A stretch of DNA of 40,692 nt, from positions 1-40,692 of the forward strand of contig JAACUG010000081.1 in assembly GCA_009993045.1 (NCBI GenBank), read 5' to 3'. Shown in pieces: positions 26,361-40,692 of this stretch (the stretch's first letter is position 1; each line of letters starts with the position of its first letter). The position numbers were made by a program, and so were the translations under genes. Below the pieces are notes generated by a model. That model worked only from the letters and a program-made list of their open reading frames with translations, made no database searches and was not told where the DNA came from. The DNA comes from Cyanobacteria bacterium CG_2015-22_32_23 (GTDB taxonomy: Bacteria > Cyanobacteriota > Cyanobacteriia > Cyanobacteriales > Cyanobacteriaceae).

Positions 26361-26416
26361 TACCCGCACAAAAAATTTTTTTCAGTAACCGCTTCAGAAA
26401 TAGATAGTTTACTCAT
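26360..26416 (-). pseudogene. Relic of the gene that begins at the window end (IS607-like tnpA start)
   Basis: The minus strand reads MSKLSISEAVTEKNFLCG then a stop. The first nine residues are identical to the gene fragment starting at 40659 (MSKLSISEAAK). The similarity stops at codon 10, where unrelated sequence follows, so this is a broken 5' end and not a functional gene. It lies within the 102-bp inverted repeat. Confidence 0.75.
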
Positions 26417-26490
26417 TACTAGAGTATAGCTTAATAAATGAGGAAGTTTAATAAGATTTAAGTAACTTTTTGTTAACTGTTAAAAGCCCT
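26389..26490 (-). repeat. 102-bp repeat, inverted copy of 40585-40686
   Basis: Read on the minus strand, this segment matches the sequence at 40585-40686 with about five mismatches in 102 bases. It begins AGGGCTTTTAACAG and runs through the first nine codons of the MSKLSISEA frame. At this copy the first bases encode the last residues and stop of the DnaJ-like protein. At the other copy they encode the last residues and stop of the truncated sulfatase. The shared edge is sharp, as expected for the end of a mobile element. Confidence 0.9.
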
Positions 26491-28771: not shown

Positions 28772-29656
28772 ATGTCTATATCAGTGAATGATTTTCCCGT
28801 CAAAACCTTTAATTTTCCTGCAGGAGAATGTCATGTTAATTTATTGCCTGAAATAGTTACGCCAAAAACTGTTATTAAAGCAATTCTTCATAATGCTAAC
28901 GATATTATGGCTTTATTGCTTACTGTGGATGCTATTGCTCGTATTTTGCCGACGGTAAGTATTGAGTTAATTATTCCTTATTTTCCTTACGCTAGACAAG
29001 ATCGAGTTTGTAATCAAGGAGAAGCTCTAAGTGTTAAAGTCATGGCAGATTTGATTAATAGTTTGAAATGCGATCGCATCGTGATTATTGATCCTCATTC
29101 AGATGTAACTCCAGCGTTACTAAATAATTGTCAAGTTATCACCCAAGCAGATATTTTAGTTAAAAGTGAATTAGCAAAAACACTTCAAGAAGAAAATTGG
29201 GTTTTGATTGCGCCTGATGCAGGTGAGCAAAAAAAGACGATGGAAGTAGCGAAACGTCTAGGTTTATCGGATGTTTTTTGTGGCAGTAAAATCCGTAATA
29301 CCAAAACAGGCAAAATTCTGACGACTACTTTTCATGATGACGTTAGAGGGCGAAAAGTGTTGATAGTGGACGATATTTGTGACGGTGGTAGAACTTTTAT
29401 TGAGTTAGCAAAAGTACTTCAAAAAAAAGAAGCTCAAGAAATTGCTCTTTATGTTACGCACGGTATTTTTTCTCAAGGATTAGTACCATTACGCCCTTAT
29501 TTTACTCAAATTTATTGTTATCACACTATGTTATCCCTTGAAGAACAAGATACCAATTTTTTGACGATATTACCTTTAATTTTGAGGGAAAATTTGCCTT
29601 CAACTTTGGGGAATAAATCAAAAAAAGTCTCCAGAATTGAGGATTTAGAAGCGTAA
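28772..29656 (+). CDS. Ribose-phosphate pyrophosphokinase-like protein of an NAD-salvage cluster
   Basis: A 294-aa PRPP-synthetase homologue, shorter than the housekeeping enzyme (about 310-330 aa). PYFPYARQDR (residues 69-78) is the ATP-binding flexible region and VLIVDDICDGGRTF (196-209) is the phosphoribosyl loop, in the DDICDGGRTF form rather than the usual DDxIDTGGT. It probably makes PRPP for the NAMPT encoded 42 bp downstream. Alternatively it is an Adps-type enzyme that pyrophosphorylates ADP-ribose, a family that is commonly annotated as Prs. A strong Shine-Dalgarno sits 6 nt before the ATG. Confidence 0.85.
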   Translation: MSISVNDFPVKTFNFPAGECHVNLLPEIVTPKTVIKAILHNANDIMALLLTVDAIARILPTVSIELIIPYFPYARQDRVCNQGEALSVKVMADLINSLKCDRIVIIDPHSDVTPALLNNCQVITQADILVKSELAKTLQEENWVLIAPDAGEQKKTMEVAKRLGLSDVFCGSKIRNTKTGKILTTTFHDDVRGRKVLIVDDICDGGRTFIELAKVLQKKEAQEIALYVTHGIFSQGLVPLRPYFTQIYCYHTMLSLEEQDTNFLTILPLILRENLPSTLGNKSKKVSRIEDLEA

Positions 29657-29698
29657 GCCTTATACAACAATTATAAAATTATTACAAGAGGAAAAACC

Positions 29699-31195
29699 AT
29701 GAAAATAAATCCCCTTAATGCTATCGATTTTTATAAAACTGATCATCGTCGTCAATATCCTGAAGGTACAACTCAAGTTTATGCTAATTTTACTCCTCGC
29801 AGTGGTCGTTTAGCAAAAGTTTTAGATTCGGATGATATTCAAATCGTGTTTTTCGGTTTACAGTATTTCATCAAAGATTATTTAATGGATTGTTGGCAGG
29901 AAAATTTCTTCAAACTAGATAAAAATAAAGTTGTTTCTGCCTATAAAAGACGCATGGATACTTCCTTGGGATTAGATGCAATTTCTGTACAACATATCGA
30001 AGCGCTTCACGATTTAGGTTATTTACCTCTTAGAATTAAAGCCTTACCAGAAGGAAGTTTAATCCCCATTGGCATACCAGTTTTAACGGTAGTCAATACT
30101 CATCCTGATTTTTTCTGGTTAACCAATTATATAGAATCGGTGATGTCTTGTTATCTATGGAAACCCATAACTTCGGCAACCACTGCTTTTCAATATAAAA
30201 AGTTAATGAGACATTATGCTATAAAAACAGGAACATCTTTAGATTTTATCCCTTTTCAATGTCATGATTTTTCTTTTCGAGGTTTATCTGGGATTCAAGA
30301 TGCCATTATTAGTGGTGCGGGTCATTTAACTTCATTTTGTGGTACTGATACGGTATTAGCTATCGATTTGCTAGAAAACTATTATAATGCTAATGCAGAG
30401 CAAGAAATAATAGGTACTTCAGTACCAGCTACGGAACATTCTGTCATGGCAATGGGAATGCAAGAGGAAGAATTAGAGACATTTCGCCGACTCATTGAAG
30501 ATTTATATCCTAGAGGCATTATTTCTGTGGTGTCTGATACTTGGGATTTTTGGAAAGTTATCACCGAATATACTGTTACTCTCAAAGACAAAATCTTAGC
30601 ACGAGATGGTAAATTAGTTATTCGTCCAGACAGCGGAGATCCTGTTAAAATTATTTGTGGAGATGCTAGTTATCCTCAAAATACTCCTGAATATAAAGGC
30701 GCGATTGAATGTTTATGGGAGATTTTTGGCGGTACTATTACCCATCAAGGCTATAAAATGTTAGATAGTCACATGGGCTTAATTTATGGTGATTCTATTA
30801 CTCTTGATCGAGCTTATAATATCTTGAAACAGTTAGAAATGAAAGGCTTTGCTTCAGGTAATGTCGTTTTTGGTATTGGTTCATACACTTATCAATACGT
30901 TACCCGTGATAATTTTGGTTTTGCCATGAAAGCAACTAGCGGTGTGGTAAATGGTAAACGTCGAGATATTTTCAAAAATCCTAAAACTGATAGTGGTACA
31001 AAAAAATCAGCTAAAGGTTTACTCCGAGTTGAACAAGAAAACAATACTTATATCTTATATGAACAACAAACTCCCGAAGAAGAAAAACAAGGTGCATTAG
31101 AAATTATTTTTGACAATGGTAAGCTAGTTAAAGATTATCGCCTTGCAGATATTCGTCAACGTATCAATGAAAAATTAATAGTGAATAATGAATAG
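29699..31195 (+). CDS. nadV: Nicotinamide phosphoribosyltransferase-like enzyme
   Basis: A 498-aa homologue of NAMPT/NadV, which makes NMN from nicotinamide and PRPP. FCGTDTV carries the Asp that favours nicotinamide over nicotinate. PATEHSVMAMG contains the catalytic His (AAEHS in human NAMPT), and VIRPDSGDPVKI binds the phosphoribosyl group. Its length equals animal and bacterial NAMPT, about 100 aa longer than NAPRT/PncB. The final residues (KLIVNNE) and the stop are encoded by the first units of a tandem repeat that fills the gap to the next gene. The related Namat family, which uses ADPR-pyrophosphate, is an alternative. Confidence 0.9.
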   Translation: MKINPLNAIDFYKTDHRRQYPEGTTQVYANFTPRSGRLAKVLDSDDIQIVFFGLQYFIKDYLMDCWQENFFKLDKNKVVSAYKRRMDTSLGLDAISVQHIEALHDLGYLPLRIKALPEGSLIPIGIPVLTVVNTHPDFFWLTNYIESVMSCYLWKPITSATTAFQYKKLMRHYAIKTGTSLDFIPFQCHDFSFRGLSGIQDAIISGAGHLTSFCGTDTVLAIDLLENYYNANAEQEIIGTSVPATEHSVMAMGMQEEELETFRRLIEDLYPRGIISVVSDTWDFWKVITEYTVTLKDKILARDGKLVIRPDSGDPVKIICGDASYPQNTPEYKGAIECLWEIFGGTITHQGYKMLDSHMGLIYGDSITLDRAYNILKQLEMKGFASGNVVFGIGSYTYQYVTRDNFGFAMKATSGVVNGKRRDIFKNPKTDSGTKKSAKGLLRVEQENNTYILYEQQTPEEEKQGALEIIFDNGKLVKDYRLADIRQRINEKLIVNNE

Positions 31196-31410
31196 TTAAT
31201 AGTTAGTTAATAGTGAATAATGAATAGTTAATAGTTAGTTAATAGTTAATAGTGAATAATGAATAGTTAATAGTTAATAGTTAGTTAATAGTGAATAATG
31301 AATAGTTAATAGTTAGTTAATAGTGAATAATGAATAGTTAATAGTTAGTTAATAGTTAGTTAATAGTTAATAGTTAATAGTTAATAGTTAATAGTTAATA
31401 ATGAATAGTT
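31175..31410 (+). repeat. Heptamer-based tandem array, about 236 bp, entering the nadV 3' end
   Basis: The array is built from the heptamers TTAATAG, TGAATAA and TGAATAG with TTAG spacers. The main higher-order unit is 32 bp (four heptamers plus TTAG) and occurs about five times, with some TTAATAG doublings and a terminal run of TTAATAG copies. It starts inside the last seven codons of nadV and ends 5 nt before the ATG of the NrtR-like gene. No gene or terminator is visible within it. Confidence 0.95.
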
Positions 31411-31415
31411 AACCA

Positions 31416-32177
31416 ATGATAAATGACAAATCGCCAATAACAGAAACATATAATTCTGAAGCTGATTTTCTCGATCATTATGATCCTACAATATTTGATC
31501 GCCCTAGTACTTCCGTTGATACAGTAATTTTCACGGTTTTTGATGGACAATTACAAGTTCTTATTGTAAAACGTACAAACTACCCTTTTAAAAATCAATG
31601 GGCGTTAGTAGGTGGTTTTATTGATTTAGAAAATGATGAAACTTTAGAAGATACAGCAAAACGGAAATTAGAGGAGAAAACAGGAGTAAAAACGCCCTAT
31701 TTAGAGCAATGCTTCACTATTGGCAATAAACAACGAGATCCAAGGGGATGGTCAGTAACTACGGTTTATTTTGCTTTATTACCCCATAATAAGATTCAAC
31801 TTATGAAAGGTGCAAATGAGATCAAATGGTCGCCGATTATGAATAATCAAGTACAAGAATTATTAGCCTTTGATCATACCGAAATTTTGCGTCAAGCTAT
31901 CGAACGTTTACGCAATAAAGTTCTTTATACTTCTTTACCAGCTTACTTGATGGCGGAAAAGTTTACTTTAGGAGACTTACAAAAAGTTTATGAGATAATT
32001 CTTCATCGCCCTTTAGAAACAAAATCTTTTCGTCGTCGTATAGCTAAAGCTGATATTTTAGAAGAAACCACAGAAATGCGTCAAGATGCAAAACGTCCTG
32101 CTAAATTATATCGCTTAAAAAAGGATATTAATACTTATTTCTTTTTAAGAACTATTGAAGGTGCGATTAATAATTAA
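31416..32177 (+). CDS. NrtR-like NUDIX-domain transcription regulator
   Basis: A 253-aa protein with a NUDIX domain (about residues 30-165) and a winged-helix C-terminal domain (about 170-250, YLMAEKFTLGDLQKVYEII then RPLETKSFRRRIAK). This is the NrtR layout: a repressor of NAD metabolism that senses ADP-ribose. The NUDIX box GGFIDLENDETLEDTAKRKL deviates from the consensus: two residues are inserted and Lys replaces the Glu after the conserved Arg, so hydrolase activity is doubtful and ligand sensing more likely. It probably controls the two upstream genes. Its ribosome-binding region is taken over by the repeat array. Confidence 0.87.
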   Translation: MINDKSPITETYNSEADFLDHYDPTIFDRPSTSVDTVIFTVFDGQLQVLIVKRTNYPFKNQWALVGGFIDLENDETLEDTAKRKLEEKTGVKTPYLEQCFTIGNKQRDPRGWSVTTVYFALLPHNKIQLMKGANEIKWSPIMNNQVQELLAFDHTEILRQAIERLRNKVLYTSLPAYLMAEKFTLGDLQKVYEIILHRPLETKSFRRRIAKADILEETTEMRQDAKRPAKLYRLKKDINTYFFLRTIEGAINN

Positions 32178-32619: not shown

Positions 32620-33621
32620 TTATTGATGATAACGAAAATGATGAGGATTTGTTCCTGTCCAACGTTTGAAAGCACGGGTAAAATGAGCAGGATCTTCATA
32701 ACCTAATTCATAGGCAATTTCAATCATTTTTAAAGAAGAATTTTGCAGTAAATAAACAGCTTTTTCATAACGAATACAAGTTACTAATTGAGAATAGGTT
32801 AAACCATCTTTTGCTAATTTTCTTTGTAAACTACGAATGGGCATTTTAGCAATTTCTGAGGCTAAATTAATAGACAGATAACCTTCTTTTAAATGAGATT
32901 TAATCGCCTGTGTCAAAGAGTCAGTAAATTGAGAAGAAGGTGCAGATTGAGATAGTTTTTCATATTCTTGATATTTTTGATCTTCACATAAATTAAACTC
33001 TTTAGGAAAAGATAAAGCTAAAAATGATCGAGGAAATGCGATGGAAGTGATAGTAATATCTTTATCAATAAAAACTTCTTGCAAATAATGATCTGTAAAA
33101 TTACTGCATTGAGTTTGTAGAGTAATTTGCTGTGGATACCATGTTTTTCCTGCTACTTTACGAATTAAATCCATCATTAACATTAAAGAGAAATGACTAG
33201 GATGGTGTGACTCCAAAGATTCTAAGTAATTATGTTCTTGACAAAAATAAGCGGTTTCTTTATCTTCTAATAACCAGAAATGTTCTCCAGAATTAAACAA
33301 ATTTCCCAAATAAATAGCTTTCAAAATTGCATCGTATAAAGTTAGAGATTGACAAGTTAATTTACCTAAGATACCCAAAGATTCTATGGGAGTTTTTTCT
33401 CCAACTAAAAGTCCTAAATTTTCGATTCCTTCTTGAGATGCCGCTTTATTTAAAAAATCAAAAACTTGATGGCGAGAGATTAATAAATTTGGTTCATCCA
33501 GAGCAAAAATAGGTAATTTGCATTGTCTCAGTAGTTTTTCTGTAGGAGTGCCTAATTTGTGTAAAAAATCGACAAAAGGAATTAAAGCAGAAACTCGTAA
33601 AAGAGGTACATAATTCGTCAT
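32620..33621 (-). CDS. AraC-family transcription regulator
   Basis: A 333-aa regulator with an N-terminal ligand-binding domain of the Arabinose_bd type (about residues 15-200) and a C-terminal double helix-turn-helix. The latter reads INLASEIAKMPIRSLQRKLA, then EIAYELGYEDPAHFTRAFKR and WTGTNPHHFR, the AraC signature. It is divergent from the FGE gene, which starts 196 bp away, and a tandem 10-bp direct repeat in that gap is a candidate binding site. It probably activates the FGE-sulfatase genes in response to an unknown ligand. Residents of this regulator class often respond to small organic molecules. Confidence 0.92.
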   Translation of the reverse strand: MTNYVPLLRVSALIPFVDFLHKLGTPTEKLLRQCKLPIFALDEPNLLISRHQVFDFLNKAASQEGIENLGLLVGEKTPIESLGILGKLTCQSLTLYDAILKAIYLGNLFNSGEHFWLLEDKETAYFCQEHNYLESLESHHPSHFSLMLMMDLIRKVAGKTWYPQQITLQTQCSNFTDHYLQEVFIDKDITITSIAFPRSFLALSFPKEFNLCEDQKYQEYEKLSQSAPSSQFTDSLTQAIKSHLKEGYLSINLASEIAKMPIRSLQRKLAKDGLTYSQLVTCIRYEKAVYLLQNSSLKMIEIAYELGYEDPAHFTRAFKRWTGTNPHHFRYHQ

Positions 33622-33705: not shown

Positions 33706-33749
33706 TGGCACGAAATGGCAAGAAAAGATTTTCCACAAATATTTATACT
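33706..33749 (+). promoter_or_regulatory. AraC-type operator (10-bp direct repeat) and -10 box for the FGE gene
   Basis: TGGCACGAAA (33706-33715) is directly followed by TGGCAAGAAA (33716-33725), differing in one base, so two sites lie one helical turn apart. A -10 box TATACT is at 33744-33749. With a 17-bp spacer the -35 would fall at 33721-33726 (AGAAAA), which does not match the consensus but overlaps the second repeat. This is the arrangement of an activator-dependent promoter with the activator touching the -35 region. Binding by the adjacent AraC protein is inferred. Confidence 0.55.
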
Positions 33750-33817: not shown

Positions 33818-34783
33818 ATGAAAAATGTTCTTTTTATATTCGCAATAGTTTGTATTCTTTTTTTCGTCTTTATTCCCTCAGTTTTAGCTTGTTCAACTGG
33901 TATGAAAAAAATTCATGGAGGTACTTTCACTATCGGTGCAAATAACGAATTTCCTGAAGAAAGATCCGCTCAATCGGTTACTGTAAAAGATTTTTGTATT
34001 GATAATTATGAACTGACTAATCAACAATTTGCCAAGTTTGTAGAAGCCACAGATTATATTACCATTGCCGAACGTCCTTTATCTGTAACACAATTTCCTG
34101 ACTTAACAGAGGAGGAGCGATTACCGGGTTCTGTGGTATTTCAACCGATACCTGAAGGACAATCATTCAGTGAATTAAGTTGGTGGCATTGGGTACAAGG
34201 GGCAGATTGGCGACATCCTCAAGGAAAAAATAGCACCATTGAAGGAAAAGAAAATCATCCCGTTGTCCATGTTGCCTATGATGATGCGATCGCCTATGCT
34301 CAATGGGCGGGTAAATCTTTACCAACGGAAGCCCAATGGGAATTTGCCGCTAGGGGAGGCTTAAAAGACAAAATTTTTGCGTGGGGAAATACCTATAATC
34401 CCAAAAAAGCCAACACATGGCAAGGAGAATTTCCCGTAAAAAATACCCAAGTCGATGGTTATGTCACTACTGCACCTGTTGGCTCTTTTCCCCCCAATGG
34501 TTACGGCTTATATGACATGACGGGGAATGTATGGGAATGGACTCAAGACTATTATCATTATGGTCATGATAGTAAATCTCATCAAGTCAATCCTGTGGTT
34601 AGTAACGAAAAAGAAAGTTTTGATCCTCGTGATCCTAATGTCATAAAACACGTTATCAAAGGCGGTTCTTATTTATGTGCCAAAAACTATTGTAGTCGTT
34701 TTCGTCCATCTGCAAGGGAAGCAGAATCAGCAGATACGGGTACATCTCATATCGGATTTCGTTTAGTCACATCTGCACCATAA
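33818..34783 (+). CDS. Formylglycine-generating enzyme (FGE/SUMF1 family), exported
   Basis: A 321-aa FGE-sulfatase domain protein that converts the Cys of CxPxR sulfatase motifs to formylglycine. Family signatures include MKKIHGGTFTIG, FCIDNYELTNQQFAKFV, LPTEAQWEFAARGG and MTGNVWEWTQDYY. GGSYLCAKNYCSRFRP supplies the two active-site cysteines C287 and C292, spaced as in characterised copper-dependent FGEs. An N-terminal signal peptide (about residues 1-25, ending SVLAC) implies periplasmic or lipoprotein location, which is unusual because many bacterial FGEs are cytosolic. It opens the locus that ends in two sulfatase genes, its likely substrates. Confidence 0.93.
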   Translation: MKNVLFIFAIVCILFFVFIPSVLACSTGMKKIHGGTFTIGANNEFPEERSAQSVTVKDFCIDNYELTNQQFAKFVEATDYITIAERPLSVTQFPDLTEEERLPGSVVFQPIPEGQSFSELSWWHWVQGADWRHPQGKNSTIEGKENHPVVHVAYDDAIAYAQWAGKSLPTEAQWEFAARGGLKDKIFAWGNTYNPKKANTWQGEFPVKNTQVDGYVTTAPVGSFPPNGYGLYDMTGNVWEWTQDYYHYGHDSKSHQVNPVVSNEKESFDPRDPNVIKHVIKGGSYLCAKNYCSRFRPSAREAESADTGTSHIGFRLVTSAP

Positions 34784-34819
34784 ATTAAAAATATTATTAA
34801 TAAATTTAAGAGTAATTCC

Positions 34820-35392
34820 ATGATCAAAATACCCCAATTTTTCGCTATTTCAGCTTTAGCAGTATCGGTTATTTCCGTCACTGGGAACTTTTCCCCCCTC
34901 AAAGCCCAACAACAAAAAACGGAAGAACAAAAAGTACAATTAATGTTTGTTCAAACCGCCGATAACATCAAAACTGATAATCAAACGATTCGCCTAGTCA
35001 ACGTCAATGCTCAGACTGTCTATTTTGCTGATCGCCCTGTACGTTTAGCAGGTCATATTACTACCCCTGAATATATGAAAGAATGGACTGCTAGTGCTGG
35101 TTCAGACAATTTCAAGAATGATCCTCCTAACGCTACTCTTTCGGTTTATGAAAAAGGACAACCTCAAAATAGTGTTGTGGTGATCGAAATTAGTAACCCT
35201 GTTATTGATGGTAAAGACATAGTTTATAACTACAAAGTAATCGAAGGTGCAATGCCCAAATCTGGAGGGCAAAGTGCCTTATTTATTGACTGGATTGGTG
35301 CAGGAGGAGGAGTCGGGCCAGGTTTTCATGGGGTGGGAGTTGGTACTCGTGGGGTTGGTGTTTATGGTGGTTACGGTGGCCCCTTAAGATAA
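34820..35392 (+). CDS. Secreted protein of unknown function, sulfatase-neighbourhood family
   Basis: A 190-aa protein with a signal peptide (about residues 1-30). The body has VQTADNIKTDNQTIRLVNV, VYFADRPVRLAGHITTPEY, then DPPNATLSVYEKG and SGGQSALFIDWIGA. The pattern of a YFADRPxRxAGH motif followed by PPNATLSV and ALFID recalls an uncharacterised family I have seen near sulfatases and similar genes in other bacteria; I know no function. The C-terminus is glycine-rich (GVGVGTRGVGVYGGYGG), perhaps a flexible or surface-attached tail. It lies 36 bp after the FGE gene in the same direction. Confidence 0.75.
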   Translation: MIKIPQFFAISALAVSVISVTGNFSPLKAQQQKTEEQKVQLMFVQTADNIKTDNQTIRLVNVNAQTVYFADRPVRLAGHITTPEYMKEWTASAGSDNFKNDPPNATLSVYEKGQPQNSVVVIEISNPVIDGKDIVYNYKVIEGAMPKSGGQSALFIDWIGAGGGVGPGFHGVGVGTRGVGVYGGYGGPLR

Positions 35393-35432
35393 GAATAGAT
35401 AAATTTACAAATAAAAAGAACTATTGCTAATA

Positions 35433-35933
35433 ATGGAAAAACTTAAAGAAGAACTCAAAAAAATTGGCTCTTTGTCCCTTTTTTTTATGATAGGATTTGG
35501 CTTTATTTTGGTCATGATGAAACTTTTATTAGAGCAATATGAGATTAGTCTTTATGTTTTTTCTAAAGTAATTATTAGTTCATTAGTGGCGGCTAAAGCA
35601 GTGGCAATTATGGACATGACTCCGATATTAAATCGTTATGCTCATTCCCCCCGTTATATAAATGTGTTATATAAAACTTTTCTTTATAATTTTGCCGTTT
35701 TAGTTATTTCTTTGATGGAAAATCTTTTCCATGCCTATAAGGAAACTAAAGCCATTGGAGAGGCGATCAAACTATTTTTAGAAACCCGTCATTTATCTCA
35801 TTTTTTAGCAGTAACTTTATGTGTCTCAATGATTTTTTTAATTCATAATATTTTTCAAGAAATTGATAATTATTTAGGAAAAGGAAATTTAACTAAATTA
35901 TTTTTCGTTTCAAAAAATTCTGAACTAATATAA
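35433..35933 (+). CDS. Small membrane protein of unknown function
   Basis: A 166-aa protein with three or four hydrophobic helices: LSLFFMIGFGFILVMMKLLL, VIISSLVAAKAVAIMD, LYNFAVLVISLMENLF and FLAVTLCVSMIFLIHNIF. I place the start at ATG 35433 rather than the TTG at 35424 because ATG gives a normal N-terminus. I do not recognise the family. It sits in the FGE-sulfatase gene run, 40 bp after the glycine-rich protein gene. Confidence 0.7.
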   Translation: MEKLKEELKKIGSLSLFFMIGFGFILVMMKLLLEQYEISLYVFSKVIISSLVAAKAVAIMDMTPILNRYAHSPRYINVLYKTFLYNFAVLVISLMENLFHAYKETKAIGEAIKLFLETRHLSHFLAVTLCVSMIFLIHNIFQEIDNYLGKGNLTKLFFVSKNSELI

Positions 35934-35962
35934 GGTTATTGAGGATTAAAAACAGTAAATAT

Positions 35963-36502
35963 ATGAAAATAATTAAACTGATTTCACCTTTTTTATTAAC
36001 TACCAGTGGTATTTTTTTTAACCCCTCTACTTATGCTCAACAAACTGATAATCCTAATTATTTCACGGGGCAACCTCCCGTTTTTGTTGGTGCGCAAACT
36101 CCTGACTCTACCATTAACTGGCCCAATGCTCATTATTATTTCACCTTTCACCTACCTAATAATTCGATCGAATCTTTGGGAAAAGTAACTATTCAACAAC
36201 AACAAAACGTTAATGTAATTCCTATAGATATATCAAGTACTTATGCTTTTATCGGTACTCAAGGAAATATAGGTAAACCTCTTACCATTCAAACTACTCA
36301 AGACTCCCAAACTCAGGCAGTAACGGTGGTTTTTAATCCTCCTATACCCCCTGGAACAACTTTTAGCGTTCGTCTTGAAGCCTTCCGAAATCCTCCAGAT
36401 GATGACACTTATCTCTATAGCGTAACCGCTTTTCCTGCAGGAAACAATGCCACTGGTTTACCGATGGGAGTAGGAAGATTTAGCTTTTATAGATTCTTTT
36501 AG
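35963..36502 (+). CDS. DUF2808 domain secreted protein
   Basis: A 179-aa protein with a clear signal peptide (MKIIKLISPFLLTTSGIFF, cleaved near TYAQQ). The mature part matches DUF2808, a cyanobacterial family: HYYFTFHLPNNSIESLGKVT, VVFNPPIPPGTTFSV and YSVTAFPAGNN followed by MGVGRFSFY. The function is unknown; it is probably an extracytoplasmic beta-rich protein. I use the ATG at 35963 because the TTG at 35939 would add eight charged residues before the signal peptide. Host-like composition. Confidence 0.85.
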   Translation: MKIIKLISPFLLTTSGIFFNPSTYAQQTDNPNYFTGQPPVFVGAQTPDSTINWPNAHYYFTFHLPNNSIESLGKVTIQQQQNVNVIPIDISSTYAFIGTQGNIGKPLTIQTTQDSQTQAVTVVFNPPIPPGTTFSVRLEAFRNPPDDDTYLYSVTAFPAGNNATGLPMGVGRFSFYRFF

Positions 36503-36528
36503 TTAAAAAATAAGTGAGAAATTAATTT

Positions 36529-36972
36529 ATGAATTTAAAATTATTTACCATCGTAACTTTATTAAGCGGAATTTGGAGTAATGTAACCTTAATTCCCTTA
36601 AAAGCGCAAACACCCTCAAAGATTCCTACCGTGATTCCAGCAAATGTAGATGATTTACCAACTGATCCCGATCAGTTAAAAACATGGTATTGCAGTCAAG
36701 AAAATCAAGGAATTTTGGTAGAAGTTAAACTCGTTAATAATTGGCAAGACACCATCAAAACTAATCAATGGCAATGTGAAGAACAATTAGTTAATCTTCC
36801 TGATAATGCCCCTCAATTTTCTTGTGAATCGGACGAAAATCAAATCAACTTGATTACCGTTACTTGGATAAAAGGCAATGAAGGTAAATCAACCATGAAA
36901 AATTGGATTAACACCTTTGAAAATCAAAGTATGGTTTGTACTATTGACCTAAGTAATCCATTTTGGAATTAA
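36529..36972 (+). CDS. Secreted hypothetical protein with four cysteines
   Basis: A 147-aa protein with a signal peptide (LFTIVTLLSGIWSNVTLIPL, cleavage near LKAQ). The mature domain has four cysteines (WYCSQE, WQCEEQ, FSCESD and VCTIDL), enough for two disulfides. I do not recognise the family. It ends 16 bp before the sulfatase gene and is the last host-like (AT-rich) gene before the composition changes. Confidence 0.65.
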   Translation: MNLKLFTIVTLLSGIWSNVTLIPLKAQTPSKIPTVIPANVDDLPTDPDQLKTWYCSQENQGILVEVKLVNNWQDTIKTNQWQCEEQLVNLPDNAPQFSCESDENQINLITVTWIKGNEGKSTMKNWINTFENQSMVCTIDLSNPFWN

Positions 36973-36988
36973 GCAACCTAGTAAAATA

Positions 36989-39775
36989 ATGCTTACACGT
37001 TTTAGATATTTTCTTAATAGCTTATTTCCGAAAAATTTTAAGCTCATATCGGTAGGAATACTGGTTTTCTTCATGGTAATAGGTTCGGGAGCATTTTTTT
37101 CTTCGGCCATCGCCCAGACCCTCGAGGACACTTCCGGCTCACCTGCCGTTAGCATCAGCGCAAAACAGCTTCCGCCATCCGATGCCAAGTTCACGCCGCA
37201 GGTTACGGGCAAGTTAGGTTCAGCCAATGCCACTACCACTATTAGCGGACAACAACTTCCGCCGCCCGATCCGAAGTTTGGTGGGGTAATTAAGCAAAGA
37301 GCTTCGGAGTCAAAGGCTTGGTGGCCACCGCGCGTCGTTCCGCCTAAGAAAGCCCCCAATGTGCTACTAATTATGTCCGACGACGACGGATTCGGTTCGC
37401 CGAGTACCTTCGGCGGTGTCATCCCGACCCCAGCCCTAGATCGTATCGCGAACAGTGGCCTACGTTACACAAACTTTCACTCAACTTCCCTCTGCTCACC
37501 GACGCGGGCTGCGATCATCACCGGACGGAATCATCACTCGGCCGGCTTTGGGGTGGTAGGCGAAATCGCAACCGGGTTTCCTGGTTACGACTCGATCATC
37601 CCGATTGAGAAGGGTACCATTGGCACAATCTTGAAGAAAAACGGCTACTCCACTGCGTGGTTCGGCAAAGACCACAACACGCCATTCTTCGAGAACAGCC
37701 AAGCTGGGCCCTTCGACCAGTGGCCTAACGGCATGGGATTTGAATATTTCTACGGCTTTGTTGGTGGCGACGCTAGCCAGTGGCAACCAAACCTGTTCCG
37801 CAATACGACCCCCATTTATCCATTTCGGGACAATCCTAACTGGAATCTAACTACAGCTATGGCTGACGAAGCGATCCAGCACATGAAACAGCTTAAGGAG
37901 CTTGCCCCCGAAAAGCCATTCTTTGTGTATTACGTCCCAGGCGGCGTACACGCTCCCCATCATCCCACCCCGGAATGGATCGATAAGATTAGCGCCATGC
38001 ACCTCTTTGACGATGGCTGGGAAAAATTGCGAGAGACCATTTTCGCCAACCAGAAAAAGCTCGGCATCATGCCCGAAAATGCCCAACTGACTTCCTGGCC
38101 AGACGGACAGGACATCTACGGTGGTGCGAAGCTACCTCGGTGGGACTCCCTTAGCCCAGAACAAAAGAAACTCTTCATCAAGCAAGCGGATGTCTATGGG
38201 GCATATCAGGCTTACGTCGATCATGAGATCGGCCGAGTTATTCAGTCCGTCGAAGACCTCGGTGAGCTAGACAATACCCTGATCATCTACATCAGTGGCG
38301 ACAATGGTGGCAGCGCTGAAGGGATGCTCAACGGTACGCCCAACGAGTTCACTACTTTCAATGGTGTCAAAGTGCCAGTCAAAGATCAGTTCCTTTGGTA
38401 CCCGTTTTGGGGATCGGATCGAACTTACCCGCACTTTGCCGCACCTTGGGCCTGGGCAATGGATACACCGTTCAAGTGGATGAAGCAAGTGGCATCGCAC
38501 TTCGGCGGTACGGCCCAAGGCGTGGCCATGTCCTGGCCCGGCCATATCAGCGATCCCGGCGGTATCCGTCGCCAATTCCACCATGTCATCGACATCGTGC
38601 CGACCATTCTAGAGGCGACAGATATTGTGGCGCCTAACATGATTGACGGCATCGAGCAAAAGCCGATTGAAGGCACGAGCATGGCATATACTTGGGACAA
38701 GGCGAACGCCAATGCCCCGACTCGGCACACGACTCAATACTTCGAGATGCTGGGCAACCGTGCCATCTATCACGATGGGTGGGTCGCGGCGACGACCCCG
38801 GCCACGTTGCCGTGGGAGCTTAGTACGAAGAACCCACCGGATGTGATTACTGGGTACAAGTGGGAACTTTACAACGTGATGGAGGATCCCACAGAGAACA
38901 ACGACCTGGCGGCCAAAATGCCAGAGAAGCTAACGCAGTTACAAAACCTCTTCTACCTGGAAGCGGCAAAGTATGACGTACTACCTCTTGATAACACATC
39001 GCTGTCGCGCTGGAATTCACCTAAACCGAGTCTGACGGCAGGGCGGACAGAGTTCACCTATTCTGGTCCATTGGCCAGCGTACCGAGCAGTACTGCGCCG
39101 AATATTCTGAACAAGTCCTACACCATTACCGCAGAGGTAGAGATCCCCAAAGGTGGTGCGGAAGGCATGATCGTCACTGAGGGCGGGCGCTTCGGCGGCT
39201 ATGGACTGTTCCTGAGCAGGAGTTACAACTATTGGCTTGAAAATCACTGGTTCAAGATAGCAGGCTTAGGGTTGCTGATCGGCGGACTGCTTCTAACCTG
39301 GTTCGGCAAAAGTCGAGCCTGGTCAGGCAGAAAACTGCGGACTGGCTATGGAATGCTGTTGCTTGGATCGCTTTGGGTGATTGCGGTGGTTGCCACATTG
39401 CTGCTGAATTTGGGTGCAACAAAGCCCGTATTCCTCTACAACCTGCTCGATCTCAAACGCACGACTTGGGAAGGACCTACGTTGAGCGTTGGCAAGCATA
39501 CTATCGTCTTCGACTTCAAGTCCGATAGCCCAGGCTTGGGTAAAGGAGGAACGGGAGTACTCTCTGTGGATGGCAAGGAAGTGGCCAAAAAATCAATGGA
39601 AAACAGCACACCAATTACATTTCCAGAGGACGAAACCTTTGACATCGGAGAGGATACGCGCACTGGTGTCGCACTGGTGGAGAATCGCTACGATGTTCCG
39701 TTTAAGTTCACTGGCACGATCAACCGTCTGACGTTCAACCTCGAACCAGAGCCTAAGGCAACATCAAAGATCTAG
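36989..39775 (+). CDS. Arylsulfatase with formylglycine motif and internal membrane hairpin
   Basis: A 928-aa type I sulfatase that would remove sulfate from esters. The catalytic Cys169 lies in LCSPTRAAIITGR, the CxPxR motif that FGE converts to formylglycine. Metal-binding Asp residues are at 131-133 (LLIMSDDDGFG), with further ones in ISGDNGG. An N-terminal signal peptide ends near residue 42. Residues 55-68 and 84-97 are two copies of a linker motif (ISAKQLPPSDAKF and ISGQQLPPPDPKF). Residues about 745-812 contain two transmembrane helices placed inside the C-terminal beta domain. Base composition is much GC-richer than the neighbours, suggesting transfer. Confidence 0.93.
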   Translation: MLTRFRYFLNSLFPKNFKLISVGILVFFMVIGSGAFFSSAIAQTLEDTSGSPAVSISAKQLPPSDAKFTPQVTGKLGSANATTTISGQQLPPPDPKFGGVIKQRASESKAWWPPRVVPPKKAPNVLLIMSDDDGFGSPSTFGGVIPTPALDRIANSGLRYTNFHSTSLCSPTRAAIITGRNHHSAGFGVVGEIATGFPGYDSIIPIEKGTIGTILKKNGYSTAWFGKDHNTPFFENSQAGPFDQWPNGMGFEYFYGFVGGDASQWQPNLFRNTTPIYPFRDNPNWNLTTAMADEAIQHMKQLKELAPEKPFFVYYVPGGVHAPHHPTPEWIDKISAMHLFDDGWEKLRETIFANQKKLGIMPENAQLTSWPDGQDIYGGAKLPRWDSLSPEQKKLFIKQADVYGAYQAYVDHEIGRVIQSVEDLGELDNTLIIYISGDNGGSAEGMLNGTPNEFTTFNGVKVPVKDQFLWYPFWGSDRTYPHFAAPWAWAMDTPFKWMKQVASHFGGTAQGVAMSWPGHISDPGGIRRQFHHVIDIVPTILEATDIVAPNMIDGIEQKPIEGTSMAYTWDKANANAPTRHTTQYFEMLGNRAIYHDGWVAATTPATLPWELSTKNPPDVITGYKWELYNVMEDPTENNDLAAKMPEKLTQLQNLFYLEAAKYDVLPLDNTSLSRWNSPKPSLTAGRTEFTYSGPLASVPSSTAPNILNKSYTITAEVEIPKGGAEGMIVTEGGRFGGYGLFLSRSYNYWLENHWFKIAGLGLLIGGLLLTWFGKSRAWSGRKLRTGYGMLLLGSLWVIAVVATLLLNLGATKPVFLYNLLDLKRTTWEGPTLSVGKHTIVFDFKSDSPGLGKGGTGVLSVDGKEVAKKSMENSTPITFPEDETFDIGEDTRTGVALVENRYDVPFKFTGTINRLTFNLEPEPKATSKI

Positions 39776-39820
39776 CGGCTTGAAACCAGATAAACGGAGA
39801 AAGGAGTGGAAAGATATCCG

Positions 39821-40156
39821 ATGAAAAGAGTACTTGTGATGGCTGCTATCAGTGAAACTGCGACGGGGTTGGCGTTGCTGATTGTGCCTTCGTTAGTCGG
39901 GCAATTATTGTTTGGTGTAGAACTGACTGGTATTGCCCTAACTGTTGCTCGCGTGACTGGCATTGCCCTGATCGCCTTAGGAGTCGCTTGCTGGTCAAGC
40001 ACACCCCAGATCGGGATTTTGGCCTACAGTGCGGCTGTTACGCTGTATTTTGCGTACGTCGGCTTCGTGGACAATTTAAACGGAATACTAATGTGGCCAG
40101 CAATTTTTGTACACGCTGTTCTGACGATACTCCTCATCTTGGCTAAACCAAGATAA
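39821..40156 (+). CDS. Small membrane protein between the two sulfatase genes
   Basis: A 111-aa protein with four hydrophobic helices (ALLIVPSLVGQLLFGVEL, ALTVARVTGIALIALGVACW, ILAYSAAVTLYFAYVGF and AIFVHAVLTILLILA). I do not recognise a named family. I start at the ATG at 39821; GTG at 39806 is possible because GGAGAAAGGAG lies there, but that site overlaps it. Composition is GC-rich like the sulfatases, so it probably arrived with them and may assist the membrane-bound sulfatase. Confidence 0.7.
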   Translation: MKRVLVMAAISETATGLALLIVPSLVGQLLFGVELTGIALTVARVTGIALIALGVACWSSTPQIGILAYSAAVTLYFAYVGFVDNLNGILMWPAIFVHAVLTILLILAKPR

Positions 40157-40199
40157 AAGGAAATTTTTATTAAGAGATTTAATAGGAGATGACTAAGAA

Positions 40200-40595
40200 A
40201 TGATTAAAAACTTATTGGCACAGTTACGTCCACTGTTGCCTGATCGTCTCAAGCCAATACTAATTGGCTTCCTAGCTACGGTGATGGTTGCCGCCCCAGG
40301 GATCTGGTATGGCCCAGCGATCGCCCAAAAAATCAACGGCGTACCCGGTTCCCCCAGTGCCACCATGTCCATCAGTGGGGAGCAACTGCCTGCTCCCGCT
40401 CCCCAATTTGGCGGGGTGATCAAAGACGATGCCCTACAGTCTAAACCCTGGTGGGCACCCCGAATCATGCCGCACCAGGATGCCCCCAACGTACTGCTAA
40501 TCATCACCGACGACGCTGGGTTCGGCGTACCGAGTACCTTCGGCGGTGTGATTCCAACCCCGACTATGGATCGCATTGCCAGAGAGGGCTTTTAA
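40200..40595 (+). pseudogene. Second arylsulfatase, truncated after 131 residues
   Basis: The 5' end of a paralogue of the upstream sulfatase. It has a signal peptide, one copy of the ISGEQLPAPAPQF linker, NVLLIITDDAGFG (metal-binding Asp pair) and VIPTPTMDRIAREGF, then a stop. In the full-length paralogue the same point continues RIANSGLRYTNF towards the CSPTR active site, so this copy lacks the formylglycine cysteine and cannot work. The break coincides with the start of a 102-bp repeat that also occurs at the dnaJ end. The remainder may lie beyond the window. A good ribosome-binding site (TAGGAGATGA) precedes it, and a HIP1 octamer lies near 40318. Confidence 0.88.
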
Positions 40596-40686
40596 CAGTT
40601 AACAAAAAGTTACTTAAATCTTCTTAAACTTACTCATTTATTAAGCTAAACTCTAGTAATGAGTAAATTATCTATTTCTGAAGCCG
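40585..40686 (+). repeat. 102-bp repeat, probable left end of an inserted element
   Basis: Begins AGGGCTTTTAACAG inside the last codons of the truncated sulfatase and matches 26389-26490 in inverted orientation with about five mismatches. Host-like AT-rich composition resumes here at once after GC-rich sulfatase DNA, so the edge is a true junction. It leads into the gene start at 40659. Confidence 0.9.
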
Positions 40687-40692
40687 CAAAAC
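40659..40692 (+). CDS. 5' end of a gene, probably IS607-type tnpA, cut by window edge
   Basis: Eleven codons read MSKLSISEAAK. This is the usual start of a MerR-like helix-turn-helix, as in IS607 serine-recombinase transposases (family pattern KLxSISxAAKxLGVS). Excisionase-like or plasmid regulators can begin the same way. The same start occurs as a broken copy at 26360-26416. Confidence 0.5.
   Translation, partial: MSKLSISEAAK

What the first reader, a model, noticed from the sequence alone, without database searches (positions are those of the whole stretch)
33818..40595. Inducible FGE-sulfatase locus with periplasmic maturation
An FGE with both active-site cysteines (C287, C292) and its own signal peptide is followed by four secreted or membrane proteins, a CSPTR sulfatase with a Sec-like signal, a small membrane protein and a second sulfatase. 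An exported FGE means formylglycine would form outside the cytoplasm, as in the eukaryotic ER and unlike the cytosolic route known for several bacteria. Together with the divergent AraC gene it looks like one regulated desulfation system, with unknown small proteins as possible partners.
Basis: partly seen in the sequence, partly recalled or inferred. Interest (0 to 1): 0.65.

Follow-up and report, generated by a model that had tools for sequence, protein, structure and literature searches.

The report
Exported sulfatase-activating enzyme with its sulfatase
This cyanobacterium carries a switchable gene set in which the enzyme that activates sulfatases appears to be sent out of the cytoplasm together with its sulfatase, although bacterial versions of this enzyme are usually described as working inside the cell.

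Summary
The locus is real. The FGE (33818-34783) has both catalytic cysteines, a strong signal peptide and an FGE-fold model (Z 36). It lies in a cyanobacterial clade of 28 rows that all have a signal and an extra cysteine pair (C25, C60); 0 of 26 cytosolic cyanobacterial FGEs have the pair. Within 1 kb, exported FGEs sit beside Sec-type sulfatases in 18 of 18 cases; cytosolic FGEs beside unsignalled or Tat ones in 14 of 18. SULF1 is the only intact sulfatase found in the genome; its one cysteine is the modification site. Best reading: both proteins leave through Sec and formylglycine forms in the periplasm. Location and activity are untested. Regulation is supported: TGGCACGAAATGGCA occurs once in 3.27 Mb, 97 bp before the FGE, and recurs at related AraC loci. 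Corrections: the second sulfatase is a 131-residue stump ending at a multicopy repeat before its CSPTR motif. Of the small proteins, S190 tracks sulfatases and DUF1254 rather than FGE, M169 tracks the locus only partly, DUF2808 is uninformative, and S147 had no relative in the neighbourhoods searched. SULF1 also carries a two-helix hairpin absent from 22 homologues. A new variant of a known kind.

The parts
32620..33621 (-). AraC-family regulator, divergent
   Evidence: PF12833 67 bits and PF12625 56.8 bits; relatives at the loci of G231, G065 and plasmid CP101712
33706..33720 (+). Putative AraC operator TGGCACGAAATGGCA, direct repeat with 10-bp period
   Evidence: Single match in 3.27 Mb; also in G231, G065 (2) and CP101712; 0 in G239, G218, G157; reversed control 0 in all 7
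33818..34783 (+). Exported formylglycine-generating enzyme; C25 and C60 putative disulfide; C287 and C292 catalytic
   Evidence: PF03781 262 bits; clade of 28 exported rows; cysteine pattern; model pLDDT 88.2 and Z 36.0 to 5nyy
34820..35392 (+). S190, secreted all-beta protein of an unnamed family
   Evidence: 5 of 242 class genomes, all 7 places in sulfatase loci; 359 relatives, 37 of 79 fetched loci with a sulfatase
35424..35933 (+). M169, membrane protein with three hydrophobic segments
35939..36502 (+). DUF2808 protein, secreted
   Evidence: PF10989 137.5 bits
36529..36972 (+). S147, secreted, four cysteines, no family
   Evidence: No Pfam match; no match in 60 + 79 loci
36989..39775 (+). 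SULF1, Sec-type S1 sulfatase, single cysteine C169 in CSPTR
   Evidence: PF00884 174.4 bits
39221..39418 (+). In-frame hairpin insert in SULF1 (two hydrophobic segments)
   Evidence: Missing from 22 of 22 aligned homologues: 59 residues (747-805) against the 7 nearest, 66 (745-810) against the other 15
39806..40156 (+). M116, small membrane protein
   Evidence: relatives in 8 of 79 S190 loci
40200..40595 (+). SULF2 stump, 131 aa, no active-site motif
40596..40692 (+). Start of a multicopy repeat, insertion-sequence-like
   Evidence: 23 matches in the genome, at least 10 within 20 bp of a contig start

Best explanation
The locus is an AraC-controlled desulfation operon that works outside the cytoplasm. 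On induction the FGE and the sulfatase SULF1 are both made with cleavable signals and leave unfolded through Sec. The FGE folds in the periplasm, held by a Cys25-Cys60 disulfide, takes up copper and oxygen there, and turns the lone cysteine of SULF1 (C169) into formylglycine before SULF1 has finished folding. SULF1 then removes sulfate from an exported or external sulfate ester; in this strain an inserted hairpin probably anchors it in a membrane. Shown from sequence: both export signals, intact active-site motifs, the clade-wide cysteine pair, the pairing of exported FGEs with Sec-type sulfatases, the locus-restricted repeat. Inferred: the disulfide, periplasmic catalysis, metal loading, inducer, substrate and anchor.
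For: Clade of 28 rows, all with a signal, support 100/99. C25 and C60 both present in 28 of 29 exported and 0 of 26 cytosolic cyanobacterial FGEs, catalytic pair in all 55. Nearest sulfatase within 1 kb is Sec-type for 18 of 18 exported FGEs and not Sec-type for 14 of 18 cytosolic ones; within 9 kb 30 of 33 and 27 of 33. On the sulfatase tree 8 independent pairs, FGE export goes with sulfatase export in 5.0 and against it in 0.0 on average. SULF relative and FGE co-occur in 39 genomes of 242 (43 and 46 have them). The window FGE is the only one of four PF03781 proteins of the genome with both cysteines. SULF1 is the only intact PF00884 protein found. Operator. Model matches FGE structures at Z 35-36.
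Against: No localization or activity data. Four cyanobacterial loci of one family group (L103, L104, L106, and L107 by hand call) and L256, L257 pair a cytosolic FGE with a Sec-type sulfatase, so a cytosolic FGE may be enough. Three exported FGEs have a nearest sulfatase, 3-5 kb off, that was not Sec-type (L240, L241, L263). Phylogenetically corrected support is weak: median sign-test p 0.0625 on the sulfatase tree, no power on the FGE tree. Signals were judged by a hydropathy script, not by SignalP. G239 holds the FGE, sulfatase and S190 but not the operator. Recalled, not tested: the radical maturase AtsB acts in the cytosol on a sulfatase that is then exported.
Confidence: 0.75

Rival explanations
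1. The FGE acts in the cytoplasm on nascent SULF1 before either is exported, and its signal peptide only moves the enzyme out afterwards or serves membrane targeting.
For: Cytosolic FGEs beside Sec-type sulfatases exist (L103, L104, L106, L107, L256, L257), so modification before Sec export may be possible.
Against: It does not explain the extra cysteine pair present only in signal-bearing forms or the 18 of 18 pairing within 1 kb.
Confidence: 0.1
2. The exported FGE-like protein has lost maturase activity and is a structural periplasmic protein, like GldK/PorK.
For: Best NCBIfam match is GldK, a lipoprotein of the same fold; PorK chains are among the structure matches at Z 27.
Against: GldK score 154.1 is far below its cut-off of 350; true FGE structures score Z 35-36; both catalytic cysteines are kept in 29 of 29 exported cyanobacterial rows and a sulfatase lies close by in most loci that could be examined.
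Confidence: 0.06
3. The locus is decaying in this strain: an imported sulfatase block that is no longer used.
For: SULF2 is truncated; contig C75 carries a gapped sulfatase and a gapped DUF1254 gene; SULF1 has a unique insertion.
Against: AraC, FGE, S190, M169 and SULF1 frames are open, and the operator matches those of other loci letter for letter.
Confidence: 0.15

Closest known systems
Human FGE (SUMF1), in the endoplasmic reticulum
   Same: Same fold (1y1e, Z 35.8, rmsd 1.9, 261 residues), same catalytic cysteine pair, enters a secretory, oxidising compartment by a signal peptide, has structural disulfides (PMC4505483, passages)
   Different: The extra cysteines differ: C25 and C60 here, against human C218-C365 and C235-C346 (named in PMC4505483); bacterial; linked in an operon with its client
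Streptomyces coelicolor and Thermomonospora curvata FGEs
   Same: Same fold and active site (2q17 Z 35.4; 5nyy Z 36.0)
   Different: Prokaryotic FGE is described as residing in the cytosol (PMC4505483, passages); the window FGE has a signal peptide and an extra cysteine pair
GldK/PorK
   Same: Exported protein with the FGE fold
   Different: Window protein fails the GldK cut-off (154.1 against 350 bits) and keeps the FGE cysteines
Pseudomonas aeruginosa arylsulfatase AtsA (1hdh) and other S1 sulfatases
   Same: PF00884 domain and CxPxR motif
   Different: SULF1 is about 390 residues longer than the 536-residue 1hdh chain, with a C-terminal region outside the match (121-651), a Sec-type signal and a hairpin insert
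Sulfatase clusters on rhizobial plasmids (Rhizobium binae p2)
   Same: S190 relative, SULF1 relative (72% identity), M116 relative, DUF2092 and a second sulfatase in a row
   Different: No FGE among the features listed next to it, and no transmembrane hairpin in its SULF1

Membership tests
Aerobic formylglycine-generating enzyme | FGE-sulfatase domain over its length | tested here: met
   PF03781 262 bits, residues 28-317; Z 36.0 to 5nyy
Aerobic formylglycine-generating enzyme | Both active-site cysteines | tested here: met
   C287 and C292 in GGSYLCAKNYCSR
Aerobic formylglycine-generating enzyme | Copper-dependent conversion of CxPxR cysteine | not testable with these tools
   Needs an assay
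Prokaryotic cytosolic FGE type | No export signal (cytosolic) | tested here: not met
   Signal-like N-terminus, hydropathy maximum 3.52; 28 of 28 clade rows have one. By sequence only
GldK/PorK lipoprotein | NCBIfam equivalog cut-off | tested here: not met
   154.1 against 350 bits
S1 formylglycine-dependent sulfatase (SULF1) | Sulfatase domain with CxPxR | tested here: met
   PF00884 174.4 bits; CSPTR at 169
S1 formylglycine-dependent sulfatase (SULF2) | Sulfatase domain with CxPxR | tested here: not met
   131 aa, no Pfam match, no motif
Anaerobic sulfatase-maturating enzyme elsewhere in this genome | TIGR03942 cut-off | tested here: not met
   Best match 145.8 against 349.45 bits
AraC-family regulator | HTH_18 domain with an N-terminal ligand domain | tested here: met
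   PF12833 and PF12625 over cut-off
AraC-family regulator | Binds the direct repeat at 33706-33720 | not testable with these tools
   Inferred from recurrence of the repeat

The most novel reading that the evidence does not exclude
Bacteria hold two compartment types of FGE, matched to how the client sulfatase travels. Exported FGEs, stabilised by lineage-specific disulfides (C25-C60 in cyanobacteria; an N-terminal cysteine with one at alignment position 223 in alphaproteobacteria), mature Sec-exported sulfatases in the periplasm; cytosolic FGEs serve cytosolic or Tat-exported sulfatases.
Probability: 0.6. Interest if true: 0.75.

Novelty: new variant of a known kind. Interest (0 to 1): 0.6.

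Why it matters
Prokaryotic FGE is described as an enzyme of the reducing cytosol, and the contrast with the ER enzyme has been used in reasoning about its chemistry (PMC4505483, passages). An exported bacterial FGE would be a simple bacterial counterpart of ER sulfatase maturation. It would explain how some Sec-exported sulfatases get their formylglycine, give a rule for pairing maturase and client when sulfatases are made in bacteria, and offer disulfide-containing bacterial FGEs for aldehyde-tag chemistry. The claim can be tested directly with a few constructs.

Tried and rejected
Lipoprotein reading of the FGE: C25 follows the signal directly, but in many relatives the same cysteine lies a few residues after the likely cleavage site (for example FAANSCPEG), so I read it as structural; not excluded for the window protein. 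GldK, EgtB, SenA and PvdO memberships: all below cut-off. A copy of the missing SULF2 stretch elsewhere: not found. FGE as the general partner of S190: rejected; 3 of 79 S190 loci have an FGE in the stretch held (31 of the 79 stretches are not over 15 kb), and 11 of 37 S190 genomes have one at E up to 1e-50 (38 of 79 loci given). S190 fold search: Foldseek found 0 matches at E up to 0.001, best Z in the second look 5.6, so no function assigned. SULF1 hairpin in plasmid records: no match. Promoter scan: 24 sigma-70-like sites against 16.8 expected, terminators 4 against 8.7; not informative. The single-cysteine pattern of SULF1 as support for FGE location: rejected, since 4 of 4 long Sec-type sulfatases beside cytosolic FGEs also have one cysteine. 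Fisher tests (1.5e-8, 1.6e-6, 3e-33) ignore relatedness and are not relied on.

Literature: ten searches of the open library; none of the titles, abstract starts or passages that I saw reports an exported or periplasmic bacterial FGE. Only CC0, CC BY and CC BY-SA papers are held, and several searches list only the best of many hits. Papers of which I saw passages found by terms: PMC10154612, PMC6388578, PMC5066984, PMC4505483, PMC11450739, PMC9723792, PMC10880615. Of all others I saw listings only. Recalled, from no call: cytosolic action of AtsB; the look of twin-arginine signals, lipoboxes and Sec signals; that the repeat at 40596 resembles an IS607-type element.
Full report
THE OBSERVATION. 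The window is the whole of contig C88 (40692 bases) of a 3.27 Mb genome. The host is taken as a cyanobacterium: genomes of its class have contigs with the lengths of named cyanobacterial records (G231:C54 and L161, G239:C22 and L158, G145:C112 and L179). The FGE is a full PF03781 protein with both active-site cysteines. SULF1 is a full PF00884 protein with CSPTR at C169 and no other cysteine. From the FGE onward the genes run on one strand with gaps of 5 to 43 bp, and AraC diverges across 196 bp. The claimed second sulfatase is a 131-residue stump without the active-site motif. It ends where a 97-bp sequence begins that has 23 matches in the genome, itself included, at least ten of them at contig starts. 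Contig C75 carries the 3' part of such a gene with an internal gap, a paralogue of S190 and a gapped DUF1254 gene. The active-site stretch between was not found in the assembly. That C75 continues this island is inference.

IS THE FGE OF AN EXPORTED TYPE? Among 242 genomes of the class, 46 have an FGE relative at E up to 1e-46, 43 have a SULF1 relative at E up to 1e-20, and 39 have both. I fetched the surroundings and read N-termini with a hydropathy script. The window FGE lies in a clade of 28 rows, support 100/99, all with a hydrophobic signal. A second cyanobacterial group begins with a polar leader such as MSQNQFVSSPTKPPGRPPAKG and is judged cytosolic. Both kinds keep both catalytic cysteines (29 of 29 and 26 of 26). 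Exported cyanobacterial rows have one further conserved pair, C25 and C60 in window numbering: both present in 28 of 29 exported rows (the exception, L110, lies outside the clade) and 0 of 26 cytosolic rows. Exported FGEs outside the cyanobacteria (12 rows, 11 of them from a search of an alphaproteobacterial class, 1 from another genome) lack this pair, but 10 of 12 have a cysteine at position 223, and those ten also have one soon after the signal. An extra pair in exported forms only is what an oxidising compartment would favour. That the pairs are disulfides is inference: the model (mean pLDDT 88.2, Z 36.0 to 5nyy) came without coordinates. The tree needs 3 changes of the export label (2 forced by starred branches), so whether export arose once or more is open.

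DOES THE CLIENT TRAVEL THE SAME WAY? For 79 FGE rows I looked for the nearest sulfatase within 9 kb; 66 had one. After one hand correction (L242), 30 of 33 exported FGEs have a Sec-type nearest sulfatase; 27 of 33 cytosolic FGEs have one without a signal (24) or with a twin-arginine signal (3), and 6 have a Sec-type one. Within 1 kb the counts are 18 of 18 and 14 of 18; the window's own pair is 2.5 kb apart and not among these. The twin-arginine cases fit the idea, since a sulfatase modified and folded inside must leave folded. The rows are related, so these counts overstate the case: on the FGE tree there are only 2 independent pairs on starred branches. On the sulfatase tree there are 8; FGE export goes the same way in 5.0 and the other way in 0.0 on average, with a median sign-test p of 0.0625 (range 0.031-0.25). 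Clade members sit beside sulfatases with CSPTR, CTAGR, CSPSR and CAPSR motifs, all judged Sec-type where within 3 kb, and G239 holds an exported and a cytosolic pair in one stretch (L063). Exceptions: L103, L104, L106 and L107 of one family group, and L256 and L257 (cytosolic FGE, Sec-type sulfatase); L240, L241 and L263 (exported FGE, other sulfatase 3-5 kb off). All 15 long Sec-type sulfatases beside exported FGEs have one cysteine, against 6 to 9 in 7 unsignalled ones; but 4 of 4 long Sec-type ones beside cytosolic FGEs also have one, so this follows sulfatase export, not FGE location.

A DEDICATED PAIR. Of four PF03781 proteins in the genome, only the window FGE has both cysteines. SULF1 is the only intact PF00884 protein found. 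No anaerobic maturase reaches its cut-off; the best radical-SAM match has 145.8 of 349.45 bits.

REGULATION. The AraC-FGE gap holds TGGCACGAAATGGCA, a direct repeat with a 10-bp period, 97 bp before the FGE start. TGGCACNAAATGGCA occurs once in this genome, once in G231, twice in G065 and once on Synechocystis plasmid CP101712, each time beside the AraC or M169 gene of the related locus. It is absent from G239, which has FGE, sulfatase and S190, and from G218 and G157; the reversed pattern gives 0 in all 7. The inducer is unknown.

THE SMALL PROTEINS. S190 is a secreted, mostly beta protein without a Pfam family. In the class it is in 5 of 242 genomes, and all 7 places lie in sulfatase loci. 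Across bacteria 359 relatives were found and 79 loci kept: 37 show a sulfatase, 31 DUF1254, 18 an AraC relative, 15 DUF2092, 8 M116 and 3, all cyanobacterial, an FGE in the stretch held. So it goes with the sulfatase and DUF1254, not with the FGE. M169 is in 6 of 242 genomes; 3 of 8 match rows lie at FGE-sulfatase loci, one more lies near a weak sulfatase match, and others near AraC or DUF2092 genes. DUF2808 matches a Pfam family and says little about partnership; it also lies at the G065 locus. S147 found no relative in the 60 and 79 stretches searched.

ORIGIN AND THE HAIRPIN. SULF1, M116 and the stump have 48-56% GC; GC3 is 0.61 for SULF1 and 0.26 for the FGE. SULF1 is 79% identical to a protein of a Thiobacillus metagenome bin and 72% to one on a Rhizobium plasmid, so the block looks recently imported into a host-like operon. 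SULF1 has 59 extra residues (747-805) against its 7 nearest aligned homologues and 66 (745-810) against 15 others, with two hydrophobic segments. A membrane anchor is the simplest reading; it is untested.

COMPARISON AND VERDICT. It works like the ER system in that maturase and client would share an oxidising compartment outside the cytosol. By sequence and fold it is an FGE, but not of the cytosolic prokaryotic type described in PMC4505483 (passages). PMC9723792 reports that the sulfatases of its mat cyanobacterial bins were predicted to carry signal peptides, and links sulfatase activity with fresh cyanobacterial polymer (passages), which fits an outside substrate. Ten searches of an open but incomplete library showed me no report of an exported bacterial FGE. 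I call it a new variant of a known kind, interest 0.6. On checking I lowered the probability of the general two-compartment rule to 0.6 because its support after correction for relatedness is weak.

Noticed in passing
39221-39418 (SULF1 residues 745-810): In-frame insert with two hydrophobic segments in the C-terminal region of SULF1, absent from 22 of 22 aligned homologues; no match in plasmid records.
   Followed up: partly
40596-40692 and 26391-26479: Ends of a multicopy repeat with 23 matches in the genome, many at contig starts; one copy cuts SULF2.
   Followed up: partly
L112 (contig C75) 8209-13515: Gapped sulfatase, S190 paralogue and gapped DUF1254 gene on a second contig, possibly the decayed continuation of the same island.
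   Followed up: partly
L214, L216, L218-L225: Exported FGEs of an alphaproteobacterial class with a different extra cysteine pair (N-terminal and alignment position 223), ten rows of ten.
   Followed up: partly
L252, L253, L255: Cytosolic FGEs within 170 bp of sulfatases with twin-arginine signals.
   Followed up: partly
L119, L127 and their genomes G242, G247: Sulfatases 72-79% identical to SULF1 in genomes where no FGE was found at E up to 1e-50, so their maturation route is open.
   Followed up: no
28772-32177: Phosphoribosyl pyrophosphate synthetase-like, nicotinamide phosphoribosyltransferase-like and NrtR-type Nudix regulator genes in a row, an ordinary NAD salvage set.
   Followed up: no
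L003 10026-14489: On the Synechocystis B12 plasmid the FGE and sulfatase frames are split into several pieces, so that copy is decayed or poorly sequenced.
   Followed up: no
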